Shown here in pieces: positions 1 to 6,685 of a DNA stretch of 6,685 bases (the first letter of the stretch is position 1; the number at the start of each line of letters is the position of its first letter). The DNA comes from Eubacterium sp. (GTDB lineage Bacteria > Bacillota_A > Clostridia > Peptostreptococcales > Anaerovoracaceae), in the NCBI GenBank assembly GCA_017425345.1, contig JAFOML010000062.1, positions 1-6,685 on the forward strand, given 5' to 3'. Under the pieces are notes generated by a model. That model did not search any database. It saw only the letters and a program-made list of their open reading frames with translations, and was not told where the DNA came from. A program made the position numbers and the translations under genes.

Positions 1-2
1 CG

Positions 3-140
3 GGTTCCATTTCCGACTTTCAGTGGTGGGTTATAATCCCCCACTGAAACCCGGAGGAGCTGAAGCTCCCGGCGCCCGTTGCAGTCGTTCGCTACGTCCT
101 TGACGTGCGAGCACGCCAGGAGCTACGCTCCGACTTAAAA
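3..140 (-). repeat. 138-bp hairpin-rich repeat, left copy (inverted relative to the right copy)
   Basis: Every base from 3 to 140 matches the reverse complement of 6548-6685, with no mismatch found by direct reading. Read on the minus strand (the direction of gap transcription), it starts right after the U-tract of the gap terminator with AAGTCGGAGCG and ends with GGAAATGGAACC. It holds several hairpins, the longest being the 12-bp stem with an ATTATAA loop at 9-40. No open reading frame of note and no transposase is present. Homology stops at base 140 on the gene side; the outer limit is unknown because the right copy runs to the window end. Its nature (REP-like element, non-autonomous mobile element or structured RNA) is not settled by the sequence. 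Confidence 0.95.
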
Positions 141-182
141 TAGAGGTTGTCTCTAAATGAATCAAAGCATTTTGAGACAACC
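137..182 (-). terminator. Intrinsic terminator of gap
   Basis: On the minus strand, 20 bases after the gap stop codon, GGTTGTCTC (174-182) pairs with GAGACAACC (145-153). The stem continues, after one A-A mismatch, with AAATG/CATTT (168-172 with 155-159) around an 8-base loop. The sequence then runs TCTATTTT, a moderate U-tract that leads straight into the 138-bp repeat. Position and orientation fit termination of gap. The same outer arms recur in the terminator at 6517-6551. Confidence 0.8.
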
Positions 183-202
183 CCCATCATACGAATCTAT
201 TC

Positions 203-1303
203 TTATTTCGCCGGCTTATCTTCCTTAGCAGAAGCCTTAGCCTTAGCAGCCTTTTCCTGCTCTGCCTTAGCCTTGCGCAGCTCCGCCTTCATATCCTGGC
301 GTGCCATGTACTGCACGAGGTTGATGCACTGGTTCGCATAACCCCACTCATTGTCGTACCATGCGAGCAGCTTGACGAAGGAATCGTCCAGCATGATGCC
401 TGCCTTGGCGTCGAATACGCAGGTTTGATAGTTACCGCGGATGTCGCCGGAAACGATCTCATCCTCGTTGTACTCGATGATGCCCTTCATGTAAGTCTGG
501 CTGGCTTCTTCCACTGCATCGCAGATTGCCTCATAAGTCGTCGGCGTCTTCAGCTGTGCGGTCAGGTCAACGACGGATACGTCATTGGTCGGAACGCGGA
601 AGCTCATGCCCGTCATCTTACCCTTCATCTCCGGGATGACCAGGCCGACTGCCTTTGCTGCGCCCGTGGAGGACGGAATGATGTTATTGAATACGGAACG
701 GCCGGTTCTCCAGTCACGTCCGCCGTTCGAGTCTACCGGCTTCTGCTTGGAGGTAGAAGCGTGGATCGTAGACATCAGCGCTTTCTCGATACCAAAGGTA
801 TCGTTGATAACCTTGGTCAGCGGCGCTAAACAGTTGGTTGTACAGGATGCGTTGGAAACGATAGGCATAGACGGATCGTACTTCTGATTGTTGACGCCCA
901 TGACGAATGTCGGGAATCCCTCGTCCTTGCCCGGTGCAGACAGGATGACCTTCTTGGCTCCACCCTTAAAGTGCTTTTCACAGTCTGCATAGTGCGTGAA
1001 CTTACCAGTGGTCTCGATGATGTACTCTGCGCCGGCAGAGGCCCAGTCGATGTTCGCCGGATCCTCTTCCGAGAAGACCGTGATGTGCTTTCCGTTGATG
1101 ACCAGATCGGTATCCGTTGCGCGGACGCGTCCTTCAAAACGTCCAAATACCGAGTCATACTCCATCTGATATGCCATACGCTTGATATCCGCGTTGCGGA
1201 GGTTGATCGCACAAACCTCGATATCAGTGTCCCTGTCCTCCAGGATTCTCATGATGACACGGCCGATACGTCCAAATCCATTGATTCCTACCTTAACTAC
1301 CAT
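203..1303 (-). CDS. gap: Type I glyceraldehyde-3-phosphate dehydrogenase with a Lys/Ala-rich C-terminal tail
   Basis: Glycolytic enzyme that oxidises and phosphorylates glyceraldehyde 3-phosphate to 1,3-bisphosphoglycerate with NAD(P)+ in the cytosol, normally as a tetramer. The 366 residues carry the Rossmann motif GINGFGRIGR (7-16), the active-site signature SNASCTTNC with catalytic Cys154, the partner His181, the phosphate-binding region NIIPSSTGAAKAVG (207-220), Arg236 in SFRVPT, and YDNEWGY (316-322). The start is fixed by AGAAGGAGAG (1311-1320), seven bases upstream of ATG. Two features are unusual. The loop after the second strand reads AINLRNAD, lacking the Asp usual in strictly NAD-dependent enzymes. 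The protein also extends about 30 residues beyond the usual end (337-366: 9 Lys, 9 Ala, 4 Glu). It appears monocistronic, with its own upstream region and terminator. The family call is secure; the cofactor preference is not. Confidence 0.97.
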   Translation of the reverse strand: MVVKVGINGFGRIGRVIMRILEDRDTDIEVCAINLRNADIKRMAYQMEYDSVFGRFEGRVRATDTDLVINGKHITVFSEEDPANIDWASAGAEYIIETTGKFTHYADCEKHFKGGAKKVILSAPGKDEGFPTFVMGVNNQKYDPSMPIVSNASCTTNCLAPLTKVINDTFGIEKALMSTIHASTSKQKPVDSNGGRDWRTGRSVFNNIIPSSTGAAKAVGLVIPEMKGKMTGMSFRVPTNDVSVVDLTAQLKTPTTYEAICDAVEEASQTYMKGIIEYNEDEIVSGDIRGNYQTCVFDAKAGIMLDDSFVKLLAWYDNEWGYANQCINLVQYMARQDMKAELRKAKAEQEKAAKAKASAKEDKPAK

Positions 1304-1354
1304 AAATTTTCTCTCCTTCTCATAATCTACGGCGGTTACCCGTCAAACCAAATA

Positions 1355-1384
1355 GTAATATGCCACTCATTCATCTTACAGCAA
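1355..1384 (-). promoter_or_regulatory. Candidate gap promoter (weak match)
   Basis: On the minus strand, TTGCTG (1379-1384) and TATTAC (1355-1360) lie 18 bases apart about 50 bases before the gap start codon. Both boxes match the sigma-A consensus only partly. Other weak candidates exist nearby: TTGCGC followed after 17 bases by TAAGAT, and TTGACG at 1341-1346. Because galT ends at a strong terminator just upstream, gap needs a promoter between 1304 and 1437; which boxes are used is uncertain. Confidence 0.3.
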
Positions 1385-1437
1385 GTTTTTTCAATGCGCA
1401 AGGGGTTCTGCAGTAATTAAAAATTTAACACACACAC

Positions 1438-1467
1438 AAAAAACCCACCTGAATCGGTGGGATTTTT
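1438..1467 (-). terminator. Intrinsic terminator of galT
   Basis: On the minus strand, CCCACC (1456-1461) pairs with GGTGGG (1444-1449) around the loop GATTCA. A run of six T (1438-1443) follows, then a short GT-repeat stretch (about 1430-1437). It begins a few bases after the galT stop codon. The other side also carries AAAAA opposite the T-run, which lengthens the stem, so some termination from the opposite direction is possible. It separates galT from gap. Confidence 0.9.
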
Positions 1468-1468
1468 G

Positions 1469-2959
1469 TTACAGAGAGACAGTAAAGCGGCGAAATGCGC
1501 TTTGTCCCTCTTCGGTTCTTTTAAACACTCCCGCGTCCGCGAGCACCCCGGCAAACACGAGGCCGATCTCCTGCTGCACGCGAGCATGCAGCTCGTCCGG
1601 GGCGATCTGCTCGGGCAGCCAGCTCTCCGCCCAGTCCGCGTGAGCGGCCGTAAGTTCTGAGGCACGCAGATCTCCGCCGGCAAGGACGATCCGCTCCAGC
1701 TCCGCCATCTCCTTTTTCAGGCGGGCAGGCAGAACGGCGAGTCCCATGACTTCGATCAGGCCGATATTCTCCTTCTTGATATGATGATACTCCGCGTGCG
1801 GATGGAAAATGCCCAGCGGGTGCTCCTCACTCGTCCGGTTGTTCCGCAGCACCAGGTCCAGCTCGAACAGGTCTCCTCTCCTCCTGGCGATCGGCGTGAT
1901 GGTGTTATGGGGAACGCCCTCGGTCTCGGCGAAGATGCCTGCCGCGGGATCGCTGTAGCTGCGCCATTTGCACAAAATCTCATCCGCCGCATCCAGCATC
2001 TCCTCTGTATCCCCCGGCGCGCACTGCAGCCGGATGACGGACATCGGCCAGCAGATCTCGCCGGCTCTCACGTGCGGATACTTTTTGAGTGAAAACTCCC
2101 ATTCGTACTCCGCTCTTGCCATCGGGAACTCGTAGCAGCCGCCCTGGAAGTGATCGTGGCTCAGAATCGATCCACCGACGATCGGCAGATCGGCATTCGA
2201 GCCTGCCGTGTAGTGCGGGAACCTCCGGGTGAATTCCAGCAGTTTGCCCATGCAGGCACGATCGATCTTCATCGGAATGTGCTGCTCGTTCAGGATGATG
2301 CAGTGCTCGTTGTAGTAGACGTAGGGCGAATACTGCAGGTAATATGGCTCACCGCAGAGCTCGATCGGAATCAGGCGGTGATTCTGACGGGCAGGGTGGC
2401 CGAAGTGGCCGGCATAGCCTTCGTTCTCCCGGCATAGCAGGCAGGCCGGATAGCCGCTCTTCTTCGCTTTCCCGGCCCGCGCGATATCGCGCGGATCCTT
2501 CTCCGGCTTACTCAGGTTGATCGTGATGTCGAGCTTGCCGTATTCCGTATCGCTGACCCACTTCTCGTCCCGGCGAATCCGGTCTTCGCGGATATAGTTG
2601 GTTGCGCGGCTGAACGCGTAGTACCAGTCGGTCGCAGCCTTCGCCGATTCCTTCTCTTTCGCCAGGAACGTCCGGATCACCTGGGAAGGAGGTGGTGTCA
2701 GCACGCCCATGAGCTTCGTATCAAAGAGGTCGCGCGCCTCCTGGGAATCCTCGCATAATCCTCTTTCGATTGCCAGAGCGATCAGATCTTCAAGGATCTC
2801 GGCAAGCTCCCGTGGCTTTGCTGCTTCTGCTGGCTCCTCATAGGACTCTTCTTCCATGACCTGGAGCAGTCCGTTGACAGCCCATACTCGGTCTGCTTCT
2901 TCGATCAGCCCTTTGGCAAGGGCGTAATCTGTCAATTCTTTTATCAGTTTGCTGATCAT
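1469..2959 (-). CDS. galT: UDP-glucose--hexose-1-phosphate uridylyltransferase, class II (GalT)
   Basis: Leloir-pathway enzyme that swaps the uridylyl group between UDP-glucose and galactose 1-phosphate, giving glucose 1-phosphate and UDP-galactose through a uridylyl-histidine intermediate in the cytosol. The 496-residue length and sequence fit the Firmicutes class II family, which is longer than the roughly 350-residue E. coli type. The active site reads SILSHDHFQGG: His268-Asp-His270-Phe-Gln272, with His270 the expected nucleophile. Other family-like stretches are CLLC (173-176), YNEHCIILNEQHIPM (216-230) and HPHAEYHHIKKENIGLIEVM (386-405). The first 100 or so residues form the acidic helical N-terminal region of the class. 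An ATG 72 bases further upstream is in frame, but the start at 2959 is preferred because AGGAGAGGAG lies just before it and the class normally starts here (M-I-x-x-L-I-x-x-L). No galK or galE is adjacent. It follows the MATE gene after 115 bases with no clear terminator between. Confidence 0.96.
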   Translation of the reverse strand: MISKLIKELTDYALAKGLIEEADRVWAVNGLLQVMEEESYEEPAEAAKPRELAEILEDLIALAIERGLCEDSQEARDLFDTKLMGVLTPPPSQVIRTFLAKEKESAKAATDWYYAFSRATNYIREDRIRRDEKWVSDTEYGKLDITINLSKPEKDPRDIARAGKAKKSGYPACLLCRENEGYAGHFGHPARQNHRLIPIELCGEPYYLQYSPYVYYNEHCIILNEQHIPMKIDRACMGKLLEFTRRFPHYTAGSNADLPIVGGSILSHDHFQGGCYEFPMARAEYEWEFSLKKYPHVRAGEICWPMSVIRLQCAPGDTEEMLDAADEILCKWRSYSDPAAGIFAETEGVPHNTITPIARRRGDLFELDLVLRNNRTSEEHPLGIFHPHAEYHHIKKENIGLIEVMGLAVLPARLKKEMAELERIVLAGGDLRASELTAAHADWAESWLPEQIAPDELHARVQQEIGLVFAGVLADAGVFKRTEEGQSAFRRFTVSL

Positions 2960-2960
2960 A

Positions 2961-2971
2961 TCTCCTCTCCT
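2961..2971 (-). promoter_or_regulatory. Ribosome binding site that fixes the galT start
   Basis: The minus strand reads AGGAGAGGAGA, then T, then ATG at 2959. The upstream AGGAG is well spaced for initiation at 2959. The longer in-frame ATG at 3031 has only GTTGTATGG-type sequence around it and would place the leader hairpin inside the coding region. Confidence 0.75.
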
Positions 2972-2975
2972 ATAA

Positions 2976-3021
2976 CACCTGAATACCGCCTGCGTCCCGC
3001 AGCCGGATGACCTGGCAGGTG
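2976..3021 (-). promoter_or_regulatory. Possible hairpin leader upstream of galT
   Basis: On the minus strand, CACCTG (3016-3021) can pair with CAGGTG (2976-2981). These enclose a second stem, CTGCG/CGCAG (2998-3002 with 2990-2994), closed by a GGA loop. The structure ends five bases before the ribosome binding site and has no U-tract, so it is not an ordinary terminator. It could affect translation or stabilise a processed MATE-galT transcript, but short stems of this size also arise by chance. I do not recognise a known riboswitch class. Confidence 0.3.
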
Positions 3022-3074
3022 CCTTCTCCATACAACTAATCCATCACTTTTACATAATATTACTCCAATCCTCT

Positions 3075-4412
3075 TCAGTCCCGGTAGACATTCCGACGGA
3101 ACCATAAGAGGTAGATCACACAAACGCAGATCTGCACCGCGGACGAAGCCGGCGTCGCCAGACTGATGCGGAAAATAGAGACTGGCTCGATCAGGCTCAT
3201 CAGATAGGAAACCGGAACGCGGACGCAGAATGCGCCGACGATTCCCTGCACCATGACGAACCTTGTCCTGCCGCACCCGTTATAGAAGCCGATGAAGCAG
3301 AACAGGAATGCGGTCAGCAGGCAGTCGATCGCGTAGCCTTTCAGATATTCCGCAGAAGCGATACAGACGGGAAGATCCGGGGAAAAGATCCCGCTCATCT
3401 CCACTCCATGGAAAAACGCGGTGTATCCGAGCACGATGCTGCACAGGAAAGAGATTCCCATCGCGTACAGCAGCGCCCGGGCAGCCCGGTCCATTTTCCT
3501 GGCTCCGTAGTTCTGCGCAACGAACGAGGACATCGCCTGCGCAAAGGATGACGGCACGAGCATGATAAAGGAGCAGAGTCTTTCTGCGATCCCGATCCCG
3601 GCTGCCGCCGTTACTCCAAGCTGATTGACGATGGCCATGATGACCAGAAAACTGATCGAGACCAGCAGATCCTGCAGAGCGACCGGAATGCCAAGCTTCA
3701 GGATCTGTTTGATAAGCGACCAGTGATAACCAATATCGGAAAGCTTGAAGGGAAACGGCATTCCGCTTCTCCGTACGATGATTACGGGGGCTGCTACGCC
3801 GAGTCCCTGCGCAGCGACCGTCGCAATCGCAGCGCCGGCGGATCCCATGTGGAAGTATGCGACGAGCAGCAGATCGCCTGCCACGTTCAGGATAGACGTG
3901 ACGATGACGACCATCAGCGGGATCTTGGAGTTTCCGATTCCGCGGAAGATGCTCCCAACCACGTTATACCCGACGATAAAGACGGTGCCTGCCCCGCAGA
4001 TCCGAAGATAGCTGAGCGTCGCTCCCATCGCGGCTTCCGGCGTGTTCATGATCCGCGCCAGAGGCTCTGCTGCGAAAACTGTCAGCACCGCAGCAGCAAG
4101 CCCGATCGTGACGAACATGCTGAACGTGGCGCCAATGACCCGGCCGCATTCCTGCGCCCGTTTCTGCCCGAGCAGCTGTCCGAGAATGACGGTGGTTCCA
4201 AGTGAAAGATCCGTGATCATGAATGTGACCGTTGCCATGATCTGGCCGCCGATCGTCACACCTGCCACATTGATATCGTCCGAAAACTGCCCTACGATGA
4301 GAAGATCCACAGCTCCGTAGAGCGTCTGGAGCAGCATCGTAAAAACAATGGGTATCAGAAACCCGATCAGTGGACGTATGATCTTTCCTTCAGTAAAATC
4401 GCCGCTCTTCAT
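3075..4412 (-). CDS. MATE-family multidrug/Na+(H+)-antiporter-type efflux protein
   Basis: Inner-membrane exporter of the multi-antimicrobial extrusion family, which uses a Na+ or H+ gradient to expel small cationic or other toxic compounds; the substrate here cannot be read from sequence. The 445 residues show about twelve hydrophobic segments in two similar halves. The first runs IIRPLIGFLIPIVFTMLLQT (11-30), and the second half starts near residue 232 (LIKQILKLGIPVALQDLL, 233-250). Family-like motifs are LGQLLGQKRAQECGRVIG (77-94), FRGIGNSKIPL (156-166) with NVAGD (176-180), FVAQNYGARKMDRA (297-310) and YNGCGRTRF (377-385). Start 4412 is preferred over an in-frame ATG at 4478 because GGAAGGAAGGAAGA directly precedes it and the extra 22 residues would span the promoter. 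It is divergent from the flavodiiron gene and may be co-transcribed with galT. Confidence 0.93.
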   Translation of the reverse strand: MKSGDFTEGKIIRPLIGFLIPIVFTMLLQTLYGAVDLLIVGQFSDDINVAGVTIGGQIMATVTFMITDLSLGTTVILGQLLGQKRAQECGRVIGATFSMFVTIGLAAAVLTVFAAEPLARIMNTPEAAMGATLSYLRICGAGTVFIVGYNVVGSIFRGIGNSKIPLMVVIVTSILNVAGDLLLVAYFHMGSAGAAIATVAAQGLGVAAPVIIVRRSGMPFPFKLSDIGYHWSLIKQILKLGIPVALQDLLVSISFLVIMAIVNQLGVTAAAGIGIAERLCSFIMLVPSSFAQAMSSFVAQNYGARKMDRAARALLYAMGISFLCSIVLGYTAFFHGVEMSGIFSPDLPVCIASAEYLKGYAIDCLLTAFLFCFIGFYNGCGRTRFVMVQGIVGAFCVRVPVSYLMSLIEPVSIFRISLATPASSAVQICVCVIYLLWFRRNVYRD

Positions 4413-4426
4413 TCTTCCTTCCTTCC
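4413..4426 (-). promoter_or_regulatory. Ribosome binding site that fixes the MATE gene start
   Basis: The minus strand reads GGAAGGAAGGAAGA directly before ATG at 4412, a purine tract with two AGGAAGG-like matches to the 16S 3' end. Together with the promoter at 4437-4466, it supports starting the protein at MKSGDFTEGK rather than at the longer in-frame ATG. Confidence 0.7.
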
Positions 4427-4436
4427 AGTCCTCCCT

Positions 4437-4466
4437 ATGATAGCACAGAAGAGCGGGTATTTTCAA
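4437..4466 (-). promoter_or_regulatory. Sigma-A-type promoter of the MATE(-galT) unit
   Basis: On the minus strand, TTGAAA (4461-4466) is followed after 18 bases by TATCAT (4437-4442), with TGC just before the -10 box giving an extended -10 (TGnTATCAT). Each hexamer has five of six consensus bases. Transcription would start near 4430, leaving a leader of roughly 18-20 bases that contains the ribosome binding site. No operator palindrome is evident. Confidence 0.7.
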
Positions 4467-4511
4467 CATAATTGCCACCTGGAAGATTTCCGGAGACGCG
4501 TTTTTTAGGGA

Positions 4512-4540
4512 TGGAATAAATGAAGATTTTGTAGTACAAT
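4512..4540 (+). promoter_or_regulatory. Candidate promoter of the flavodiiron gene
   Basis: TACAAT (4535-4540) is a five-of-six match to the -10 box, placed so that transcription would start near 4546, about 34 bases before the start codon. The best -35 at 17-base spacing, TGGAAT (4512-4517), is poor. This suggests either activator dependence or an alternative arrangement. A T-run (4501-4506) lies just upstream. The overall position fits; the -35 is uncertain. Confidence 0.45.
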
Positions 4541-4579
4541 AAGGGGACAGGCAAAGACCCGAAATAATAAGGAGGAATT

Positions 4580-6373
4580 ATGGTCTATAAAGTAACTGAT
4601 ACGATCACCTATATTGGTGCAAACGATTATGATATCGATCTGTTCGAGGGACAGTATATCGTACCGAACGGAATGGCATACAACTCTTACCTGCTTTCCG
4701 GCAAGAAGACCGCCATCATGGACACGATCGACAAGAGAAAGACAGAAGAATGGCTGAGCAACATCCGTCAGGTCCTGGGAGCCAAGTCTCCGGACTACCT
4801 GATCGTGCAGCATATGGAGCCGGATCACTCCGCGAGCATCGCTGCGTTTGCCAAGGCATATCCGGAAGCAATCATCGTCGGAAACAAGAAGACCTTCGCA
4901 ATGATCAATAACTTCTTCCCGGAAATGGATCTTTCGAACACCATGGTCGTGGACAACGGCGACACGCTGAATCTGGGCGGACATGAGCTGACGTTCGTCT
5001 TCGCGCCGATGGTACACTGGCCGGAAGTTATGATGACGTATGATTCTGTCGAGAAGGTTCTCTTCTCTGCTGATGGTTTCGGCAAGTTCGGAACCCTGGA
5101 CACCGATGAGGACTGGGCATGCGAGGCCAGAAGATACTACTTCGGCATCGTCGGCAAGTACGGCCCGCAGGTACAGGCAGTCCTGAAGAAGGCCGCTGCG
5201 CTGGACATCGAGAAGATCTGCCCACTGCACGGACCGTTCCTGACCGAGGACCTCGGATACTACATCGGCCTGTATGACACATGGTCGAGCTACCTGCCGG
5301 AGAGCGACGGCATCTGCATCTGCTACACGTCCGTTTACGGACACACCAAGGAAGCGGCTGAGCTGCTGCAGAAAGAGCTGCTGGATCGCGGCGTTCCGAC
5401 CGTAGAGATCAGCGACCTTGCTCGCTGCGACATGGCAGAGGCAGTCGAAGATGCGTTCCGCTACGAGAAGCTGGTTCTGGCTACCACCACCTACAACTCG
5501 GAGATCTTCCCGTTCATGAAGCAGTTCATCGATCACCTGGTCGAGCGCAACTATCAGAAGAGAACGATCGGATTCATCGAGAACGGTTCCTGGGCGCCGA
5601 CCGCAGGCCGCATCATGAAGGGCATGTTCAAGGACTGCAAGGACATCACGATCGCGGAGCCGATGGTCACGATCAAGTCCGCGCTGAACGAGGAGAGCCA
5701 CGAGGCGCTGCTCGCGCTGGCCGATGACCTGGCTGCAAGCTATCAGCCGGCTAAGATCACGGATGAGAATAAGATTGATAAGGCTGCGATGTTCAAGATC
5801 GGCTACGGTCTGTACGTGATCACCAGCAACGACGGAAACAAGGATAACGGATTTATCTGCAACACGGTTGCACAGGTAAGCAGCGATAACCACATTCTGG
5901 TTGGTATCAATAAGGCGAACTACTCCTGTGAGACCATCAAGAAGACCGGCGTCATGAACGTCTGCATGCTGAACGAGGAAGCTCCGTTCCAGATCTTCCA
6001 GCACTTCGGATTCCAGAGCGGACGGAACGTGGATAAGTTTGCGGACTTTACGCACTACAACAAGGCTTCGAACGGCCTGCCGTATCTGAACAAGTACGCG
6101 AACGCATACATGTCCCTGAAGGTCGTCCAGACGGTCGACATGGGTTCCCACTGGATGTTCATCTGTGAGATCACCGAGAGCGCTGTCCTGAACAGTATCA
6201 ACACGATGACTTACACCTACTACCAGGAGAACGTCAAACCAAAGCCGCAGGAGAAGGTCAAGGGATGGGTCTGCAATATCTGCGGATACATCTACGAGGG
6301 AGATCCGCTGCCGGAGGACTTCATTTGTCCGCTTTGTAAGCATCCGGCGAGTGATTTCAGCAGGATGGAATAA
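4580..6373 (+). CDS. Flavodiiron protein fused to flavin-reductase and rubredoxin domains (FprA-Hrb fusion), probable O2/NO reductase
   Basis: Probable cytosolic oxygen- or nitric-oxide-scavenging enzyme of an anaerobe. Residues about 1-240 form the metallo-beta-lactamase-like diiron domain, with the full ligand set His78, Glu80, Asp82, His83 (HMEPDH), His146, Asp165 and His217. Residues about 245-390 are a flavodoxin domain with the FMN phosphate loop TSVYGHT (250-256) and the ATTTYN loop (301-306). Residues about 400-550 resemble a flavin-reductase-like FMN domain (MFKIGYGLYVITS, 404-416). Residues 562-597 are a short rubredoxin with CNIC (565-568) and CPLC (583-586). Moorella encodes FprA and the flavin-reductase/rubredoxin protein Hrb as separate partners; here they are one chain, so electrons could pass from NAD(P)H through FMN and rubredoxin to the diiron site. 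AAGGAGG (4569-4575) precedes the ATG by four bases. The gene stands alone and strongly prefers C- or G-ending codons, suggesting high expression. O2 versus NO preference cannot be read from sequence. Confidence 0.95.
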   Translation: MVYKVTDTITYIGANDYDIDLFEGQYIVPNGMAYNSYLLSGKKTAIMDTIDKRKTEEWLSNIRQVLGAKSPDYLIVQHMEPDHSASIAAFAKAYPEAIIVGNKKTFAMINNFFPEMDLSNTMVVDNGDTLNLGGHELTFVFAPMVHWPEVMMTYDSVEKVLFSADGFGKFGTLDTDEDWACEARRYYFGIVGKYGPQVQAVLKKAAALDIEKICPLHGPFLTEDLGYYIGLYDTWSSYLPESDGICICYTSVYGHTKEAAELLQKELLDRGVPTVEISDLARCDMAEAVEDAFRYEKLVLATTTYNSEIFPFMKQFIDHLVERNYQKRTIGFIENGSWAPTAGRIMKGMFKDCKDITIAEPMVTIKSALNEESHEALLALADDLAASYQPAKITDENKIDKAAMFKIGYGLYVITSNDGNKDNGFICNTVAQVSSDNHILVGINKANYSCETIKKTGVMNVCMLNEEAPFQIFQHFGFQSGRNVDKFADFTHYNKASNGLPYLNKYANAYMSLKVVQTVDMGSHWMFICEITESAVLNSINTMTYTYYQENVKPKPQEKVKGWVCNICGYIYEGDPLPEDFICPLCKHPASDFSRME

Positions 6374-6375
6374 TC

Positions 6376-6494
6376 AGAACCTAACACAGCGAGTGGCGAG
6401 CCTGTAAGGCGAAGCCAGAGCTGATGTAGGTTCTATGCCAGAGCGGTCAAAACGCGAAAGCGTTTTGGGAACCGCGGGACGGCAACACTCTGCC
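6376..6494 (+). ncRNA. Structured RNA-like segment in the 3' region of the flavodiiron transcript
   Basis: Starting two bases after the stop codon, AGAACCTA (6376-6383) pairs exactly with TAGGTTCT (6427-6434). These enclose the nested stems CAGC/GCTG (6387-6390, 6420-6423), TGGC/GCCA (6394-6397, 6414-6417) and GCC/GGC (6400-6402, 6408-6410), separated by G/A-rich internal loops. A second domain has CAAAACGC-GAAA-GCGTTTTG (6448-6467), an 8-bp stem with a GNRA tetraloop. It sits on CGGT/ACCG (6444-6447, 6471-6474) and possibly CAGAG/CTCTG (6439-6443, 6488-6492). The terminator at 6517-6551 follows. I recognise no named RNA family. It could be a stable 3' UTR structure, a 3'-derived small RNA or an intergenic repeat; no separate promoter is evident. 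The pairings are seen; function is unknown. Confidence 0.45.
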
Positions 6495-6516
6495 CCCAAC
6501 ACAACTCAACGAATAG

Positions 6517-6551
6517 AAAAGTGGTTGTCTCATCGAGACAGCCACTTTTTT
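6517..6551 (+). terminator. Strong intrinsic terminator downstream of the flavodiiron gene
   Basis: AAAAGTGG (6517-6524) pairs with CCACTTTT (6542-6549). After one T-G wobble, TGTCTC (6526-6531) pairs with GAGACA (6535-6540) around the loop ATC. The right arm merges into a run of six T (6546-6551). Because of the A-run on the left arm it could also act on transcripts from the other strand. The GGTTGTCTC...GAGACA core also occurs in the gap terminator at 145-182, again directly before a copy of the 138-bp repeat. Confidence 0.9.
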
Positions 6552-6685
6552 AAGTCGGAGCGTAGCTCCTGGCGTGCTCGCACGTCAAGGACGTAGCGAA
6601 CGACTGCAACGGGCGCCGGGAGCTTCAGCTCCTCCGGGTTTCAGTGGGGGATTATAACCCACCACTGAAAGTCGGAAATGGAACC
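6548..6685 (+). repeat. 138-bp hairpin-rich repeat, right copy
   Basis: Exact reverse complement of 3-140. In this orientation AGTCG (6553-6557) can pair with CGACT (6601-6605) around GGAGC/GCTCC (6557-6561, 6565-6569) or the alternative stem TCGC-ACGTC/GACGT-GCGA (6578-6586, 6590-6599, one bulged A). Next come CCGGGAGC/GCTCC-TC-CGG with a TTCA loop (6616-6637), and TTTCAGTGGGGG/CCCACCACTGAAA with an ATTATAA loop and one bulged A (6639-6670). AAGTCGGA occurs near each end (6552-6559 and 6669-6676). There is no coding capacity. The repeat reaches the last base of the window, so its full length is unknown. Confidence 0.95.

What the first reader, a model, noticed from the sequence alone, without database searches (positions are those of the whole stretch)
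3..6685. Perfect 138-bp inverted repeat brackets a four-gene block
Bases 3-140 and 6548-6685 are identical on opposite strands over 138 bases, far longer than ordinary REP units, and no transposase lies between them. Perfect identity of non-coding sequence suggests recent spread, gene conversion or selection on structure. Inverted copies could also allow inversion of the 6.4-kb segment between them.
Basis: seen in the sequence. Interest (0 to 1): 0.7.

Follow-up and report, generated by a model that had tools for sequence, protein, structure and literature searches.

The report
Mobile folded repeat at contig ends
The two matching ends are cut copies of a small, strongly folded mobile DNA repeat without a transposase of its own, found in a minority of the related Clostridia searched; I found no earlier description of it.

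Summary
The repeat is real: 138 of 138 bases match on opposite strands. It is not a 138-bp unit and does not bracket a gene unit. Both copies run off the contig ends. Relatives show the whole element: 127-249 nt in 48 delimited copies, starting mostly TTYAA and ending before TTAT. It folds into a junction of stems with compensatory changes. It was found in 23 of 296 genomes of a related family, with 79 matches in one genome, and in two viral contigs. One copy splits a gene whose relatives indicate that TATAA was already there and that no three or more bases were duplicated. My best reading is a PATE-like, non-autonomous element of IS200/IS605 type, moved in trans. This is not proven: Y1 transposase genes are no commoner in genomes with the element (10 of 23) than without (112 of 273), and the IS605-like bulge of its end hairpin is present in only 8 of 18 copies of one set and 3 of 25 of another. 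Flipping of the segment between the copies could not be tested.

The parts
1..139 (-). Element copy 1 (sense on minus strand), 5' end TTTAAG at 139, cut at the contig start within hairpin P4
   Evidence: boundary by comparison with relatives
6549..6685 (+). Element copy 2 (sense on plus strand), 5' end TTTAAG at 6549, cut at the contig end before P4
   Evidence: same comparison
6549..6605 (+). 5' domain of copy 2: hairpins GGAGC/GCTCC and CGTG/CACG, with GTCG/CGAC at its base
   Evidence: read from the sequence; homologous 5' domains found. The single-sequence folds of the cut copies pair some of these bases differently
6608..6619 (+). 5' strand of closing stem P1 (AACGGGCGCCGG); its 3' partner lies beyond the contig end
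   Evidence: inferred; relative L179 reads CAACGGGCG...CGCCCGTTATA, others
6620..6631 (+). Stem P2 (GAGC TTCA GCTC)
   Evidence: alignment of relatives
6639..6670 (+). Stem P3 (TTTCAGTGG...CCACTGAAA), covarying among relatives
18..49 (-). Stem P3 of copy 1
145..182 (-). Terminator-like hairpin after gap, next to copy 1 (flanking)
6517..6551 (+). Terminator-like hairpin and T run after the FDP gene; its last T's overlap the start of copy 2
203..1303 (-). Glyceraldehyde-3-phosphate dehydrogenase gene (flanking, not part of the element)
1469..3031 (-). Galactose-1-phosphate uridylyltransferase gene (flanking)
3075..4478 (-). MatE transporter gene (flanking)
4580..6373 (+). Flavodiiron-type protein fused to flavin reductase and rubredoxin domains (flanking)

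Best explanation
Both arms are copies of one small non-autonomous mobile element of the PATE kind (palindrome-associated; related to, or living off, IS200/IS605-type transposons). Shown: it is a dispersed multi-copy repeat in related Clostridia; its unit starts mostly TTYAA and ends at a TTAT site; at one site the TATAA was host sequence and no three or more bases were duplicated; the sense strand has a conserved, covarying fold of several stems. Inferred: it moves as folded single-stranded DNA. Read on the other strand, an HUH (Y1) transposase acting in trans would recognise hairpin P4 about 14 nt inside the end, cut after TATAA at that end and after TTRAA at the other, and place the strand 3' of a new TATAA. 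The two copies in the window would then be two independent insertions in opposite orientation, and the contig ends are where assembly stopped inside the repeat.
For: Dispersed copies: 79 matches in G278, 18 in G289, 8 in the single-contig genome G243, one of the 8 being the other strand of the same place; 23 of 296 family genomes and 19 of 391 class genomes (lower bounds). Insertion inside a gene: in G243 a polysaccharide-biosynthesis gene is split next to TATAA. In the 11 best relatives aligned (of 172 genomes with a match) the Tyr of the TAT codon is conserved in 11 of 11; 7 of 11 have the same length as the joined flanks, 4 of 11 one residue more, none fewer; the opposite reading, with the host site at the other end (Leu), fits 0 of 11. 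Tandem: a second copy follows a truncated one in the way expected if it entered the TTATA of the first. Fold: 13 pairs with changes on both sides and 51 such cells against 15.2 (sd 3.1) in shuffles, 0 of 500 as high; sliding the partners drops pairing from 95% to 44-53%. P1 strands pair with their own partner better than with swapped ones (-15.7 against -7.0 kcal/mol; 12 of 14 rank first). Hairpin P4 on the other strand has, in 8 of 18 copies of alignment A2, six pairs, one bulged base on the 3' side and at least three more pairs; four more of the 18 have that bulge with an altered loop; shuffled sequences give it in 21 of 1800. The IS1341-type left end in G243 has the same shape.
Against: Y1 transposase genes are not enriched among carriers: 10 of 23 against 112 of 273; none was found in G289, G209 or G217, and G278 has one 261-aa Y1 protein and fragments. 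Incomplete genomes may explain part of this. The P4 bulge is missing from most of alignment A1 (3 of 25 have it; one row could not be extracted) and from three of the four full-length G243 copies, the one inside the gene included. Only 1 of 5 IS605/IS1341 ends tested meets the strict form of the bulge; two more have it with other irregularities, two do not. I did not recognise IS608-like guide sequences beside P4 (by eye). TnpB is not found in G278, G007, G008, G009. The no-duplication result rests on one gene plus one tandem. The window's own genome is not held.
Confidence: 0.5

Rival explanations
1. A mobile repeat as above, but moved by a different enzyme: a rolling-circle (Y2/IS91-like or relaxase) protein, a RAYT, or reverse transcription of its RNA.
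For: Y1 genes do not track the element and the IS605-like bulge is patchy. Stem P1 ends at the junction, as at some rolling-circle nick sites (recalled, not tested). In G243, 4 of 14 places lack the 5' part but keep the 3' end, against 2 of 14 lacking the 3' end (by eye). RAYT-length Y1 proteins (253 and 261 aa) occur in G243 and G278.
Against: 4 against 2 truncations is not a real asymmetry. Apparent 5' truncations in G278 may be assembly gaps (Ns). No element core was found within 1.5 kb of the two RAYT-like genes. Y2, relaxase and reverse-transcriptase families were not searched.
Confidence: 0.33
2. A functional structured RNA (regulatory or guide-like) that spread because it is useful to hosts or phages.
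For: Covariation and low folding energy of both window copies (z -5.9 and -7.1); present in two viral contigs.
Against: Internally deleted and truncated copies, very different copy numbers, an insertion inside a gene; no Rfam family. Neighbouring genes were not tabulated.
Confidence: 0.1
3. The inverted repeat is a local event: an assembly artefact or a single inverted duplication flanking the four genes.
For: The contig ends inside both arms, so joining errors at repeats are possible.
Against: Each copy follows a different gene and a different terminator sequence; homologous copies lie at many places in other genomes.
Confidence: 0.05

Closest known systems
PATEs of Haloquadratum walsbyi (PMC3119063; passages read)
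   Same: Too short to code, no terminal inverted repeats, no target duplication, palindromes near the ends, copies with core deletions; there too, strain-specific insertions were seen although all IS200-type transposases of one strain were pseudogenes.
   Different: Here a closing stem and further stems form one covarying junction, which those passages do not describe; similarity to local IS605 ends is patchy here. Sequences were not compared.
IS200/IS605 transposons (IS608, ISDra2 type; passages, otherwise recalled)
   Same: Insertion beside a fixed short site, here without duplication; a hairpin near the end, bulged in part of the copies; IS605 and IS1341 copies occur in G243.
   Different: No tnpA or tnpB; the site is TATAA here and TTTAT for the five G243 IS1341 copies; guide sequences not recognised.
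REP sequences with RAYT (TnpAREP; PMC8266576, passages; size from an abstract)
   Same: Dispersed palindromic repeats, possibly moved by a Y1 enzyme.
   Different: 127-249 nt instead of 20-40; GTAG occurs on either strand in only 7 of 48 copies; no element core near the two RAYT-like genes.
bcr1 of the Bacillus cereus group (recalled; only a listing and two mentions seen)
   Same: A short dispersed non-coding repeat in Firmicutes.
   Different: Not compared by sequence here.

Membership tests
PATE / IS200-IS605-related non-autonomous element | too short to code a transposase | tested here: met
   127-249 nt in 48 copies, six of them holding Ns
PATE / IS200-IS605-related non-autonomous element | no target duplication, insertion beside a fixed short site | tested here: met
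   one gene insertion against 11 relatives, one tandem. TTAT was part of the search pattern, so its presence there is not independent
PATE / IS200-IS605-related non-autonomous element | palindromes near the ends, related to local IS605 ends | tested here: inconclusive
   P4 present, but the IS605-like bulge in 8 of 18 and 3 of 25 copies only; 1 of 5 IS ends meets the strict form
PATE / IS200-IS605-related non-autonomous element | no terminal inverted repeats | tested here: met
   the two ends printed for 48 copies are not inverted copies of each other (by eye)
PATE / IS200-IS605-related non-autonomous element | a Y1 transposase in the host that could act in trans | tested here: inconclusive
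   found in 10 of 23 carriers, no enrichment over 112 of 273 non-carriers; genomes may be incomplete
PATE / IS200-IS605-related non-autonomous element | cut and joined by TnpA | not testable with these tools
   needs biochemistry
REP moved by RAYT | unit of 20-40 nt with a conserved GTAG-type tag | tested here: not met
   127-249 nt; GTAG on either strand in 7 of 48 copies; the CGTC tag was not counted
Classical MITE | terminal inverted repeats and target duplication | tested here: not met
TnpB guide RNA carrier | tnpB in the host | tested here: inconclusive
   not found in G278, G007, G008, G009; found in G243 and G305; weak matches in G289 and G301
Integron attC | insertion between G and TT, with G at the left flank | tested here: not met
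   left flank base A 22, T 10, C 8, G 8 of 48; integrase not searched
Any Rfam family | match of the element above the gathering score | tested here: not met
   the only gathering match was a tRNA in L017

The most novel reading that the evidence does not exclude
A family of mobile DNA whose recognition unit is a whole covarying stem junction closed exactly at the integration site, moved by an enzyme that is not a known Y1 transposase.
Probability: 0.2. Interest if true: 0.8.

Novelty: new variant of a known kind. Interest (0 to 1): 0.5.

Why it matters
A repeat of this kind can end contigs in assemblies of gut and rumen Clostridia, so it is easily under-seen; naming the family explains contig ends such as these two. 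If a folded junction rather than a simple end hairpin is what the moving enzyme reads, it would extend how single-strand transposition is thought to work, and high-copy hosts offer direct tests.

Tried and rejected
Terminator targeting: both window copies follow a terminator-like hairpin, but in the 48-copy set hairpins stronger than -10 kcal/mol were no commoner on the left (9 of 47) than on the right (8 of 48); a control stretch further left gave 4 of 47. TnpB guide RNA: unlikely, since tnpB was not found in four hosts. RAYT: no element core beside the two RAYT-like genes. Integron attC: the AAC/GTT base of P1 looked similar, but the left flank is not G. Retro-element with 5' truncation: dropped, numbers too small and MAG gaps confuse them. 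Empty sites in relatives of the phage contigs: none found (searches returned only L001 and L003). The automatic consensus fold on A1 missed P1 because MAFFT misaligned it, so model R1 holds only 19 pairs. Plasmid and phage collections gave one short weak match and none. Literature: searches listed no paper that by title and abstract start describes this family.

Full report
What was checked. The two arms match at 138 of 138 positions on opposite strands, and none of the four long ORFs between them matches a transposase. Its frame does not: window bases 1 and 6685 are ends of the sequence that lie inside the repeat, and the two bases before the match continue the element as relatives have it. 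Counted from the last shared base, copy 1 reaches 140 bases to the end; copy 2 reaches 138, or 140 if two further T's are shared with some other copy. That would fit a de Bruijn assembly with k of 141 that stopped in a repeat; this is inference.

What the unit is. A pattern drawn from stem P3 found 31 stretches in the genome collection, in Ruminococcus, Ruminococcaceae, Oscillospiraceae, Mogibacterium and uncultured Clostridia records. A looser pattern matched 3 viral contigs, 2 of which (L001, L003) carry the element; L002 has an unrelated hairpin by eye. Complete copies show a 5' end TTYAA in most cases, a 5' domain of hairpins, then a junction closed by stem P1 with P2, P3 and P4 inside it, ending at TTAT. 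In 48 copies delimited by pattern, from four sets, unit length ran from 127 to 249 nt. TTAT was part of that pattern, so its presence is not independent; the next base was A in 34, T in 12 and C in 2 of 48. The window copies hold the 5' domain, the 5' strand of P1, P2 and P3; they lack most or all of P4 and the 3' strand of P1.

Fold. On 18 sequences from 14 genomes (alignment A2), 36 pairs written by hand gave 95.2% standard pairs, 13 pairs with changes on both sides and 51 such cells; 0 of 500 shuffles reached these, and sliding the partners by 1 to 3 columns gave at most 53% pairing and 12 such cells. The number of further pair types (28) is not above shuffles (27.4). The double changes lie in P1 (7 pairs) and P3 (6 pairs); P2 and P4 have none. 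The structure was written with these sequences in view, which favours it over slid versions. In a separate test P1 strands from 14 lineages, picked by hand, paired better with their own partner than with swapped ones; 12 of 14 ranked their own first, and 0 of 2002 permutations did as well. A wider MAFFT alignment of 26 copies (A1) did not show P1 in its automatic fold.

Distribution and copies. BLAST with the window piece found 19 of 296 family genomes; model R1 found 23 of 296, and 19 of 391 in the class, where only 11 or 8 candidates per genome were scored, so copy counts there are floors. With fuller scoring (up to 150 candidates), G278 has 79 matches, G289 18, G243 8, G001 6, G291 1, G270 0. 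In G243, one contig of 2.30 Mb, together give 14 places: by eye 4 full length, 4 internally deleted, 4 without the 5' part, 2 without the 3' end. G270, closest by the FDP protein at 77% (the seven others were 44-66%), has one 5' domain with a short hairpin in place of P1. The organism of the window is not held; its FDP protein is 100% identical to one cluster from ENA contigs, which may be the window itself, and 87% to the next.

Where it inserts. In G243 a copy splits a polysaccharide-biosynthesis gene. On the gene strand the left flank reads ...GCGGCG TATAA and the right flank starts CGACG. The 11 best relatives aligned across the point all keep the Tyr of the TAT codon; 7 have the same length as the join, 4 one residue more. 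So TATAA was most likely host sequence, and the length leaves no room for a duplication of three or more bases. The query in that test was itself the join. A second line is the tandem in the same genome: a copy follows a truncated one as if it had entered the TTATA of the first. The G217 version ends GTTCAA instead of GTTAT, so the site can differ between subfamilies.

How it may move. Insertion beside a fixed short site without duplication and palindromes near the ends are features of IS200/IS605 elements and of PATEs (passages). On the opposite strand P4 lies about 14 nt inside the TATAA junction. In 8 of 18 copies of A2 it folds with one bulged base on the 3' side after six pairs, as the IS1341 left end of G243 does; four more of the 18 have the bulge with an altered loop, and shuffled sequences give it in 21 of 1800. 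In A1 it is present in 3 of 25 copies, and three of the four full-length G243 copies lack it, the gene insertion included; of five IS605/IS1341 ends folded, one meets the strict form, two more have the bulge with other irregularities, two do not. All these folds used RNA energy parameters. Against the mechanism, Y1 genes are as common without the element as with it. PATEs in Haloquadratum also moved although the IS200-type transposases of one strain were pseudogenes (passage), so this mismatch has a precedent. I hold the mobile-repeat reading at about 0.95 and the IS200/IS605-type mechanism at about 0.5.

What is new. No Rfam family matches the element, and the paper searches named under Tried and rejected listed no description. 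I rate it a new variant of a known kind: it works like a PATE, but its tie to a Y1 enzyme is not supported by the co-occurrence test, and the junction fold has no counterpart in the passages read. The original point of interest, an inverted repeat bracketing four genes, becomes ordinary once the contig ends are taken into account.

Noticed in passing
window 6376-6499: A second strongly folded block after the FDP gene (-58.6 kcal/mol, z -5.7); no BLAST match among the loci held.
   Followed up: partly
window 203-1303 (-): The GAPDH protein ends in a low-complexity tail rich in Lys, Ala and Glu, beyond the Pfam C-terminal domain that ends at residue 316 of 366.
   Followed up: no
window 145-182 and 6517-6551: The hairpins after gap and after the FDP gene share a GTTGTCTC/GAGACA-type stem, which extends the similarity of the two ends to 151 nt at 98%.
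   Followed up: partly
L009, L013, L018: P4 carries an extra module of about 60-70 nt with its own hairpins in these three loci.
   Followed up: no
L013 (G005): A palindrome of about 56 bp that looks like two element 3' ends in opposite orientation, with TTAT at one edge and ATAA at the other.
   Followed up: no
L245 and L246 (G217): A subfamily whose 3' junction reads GTTCAA instead of GTTAT.
   Followed up: partly
L001 and L003: Viral contigs carry the element; two copies lie 8.4 kb apart in L003, one of them at the same place as in L001.
   Followed up: partly
L131, L139, L140, L146, L148, L152, L155 (G278): A longer form with extra hairpin sequence of very roughly 50-90 nt between the 5' domain and P1, some copies broken by Ns.
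   Followed up: no
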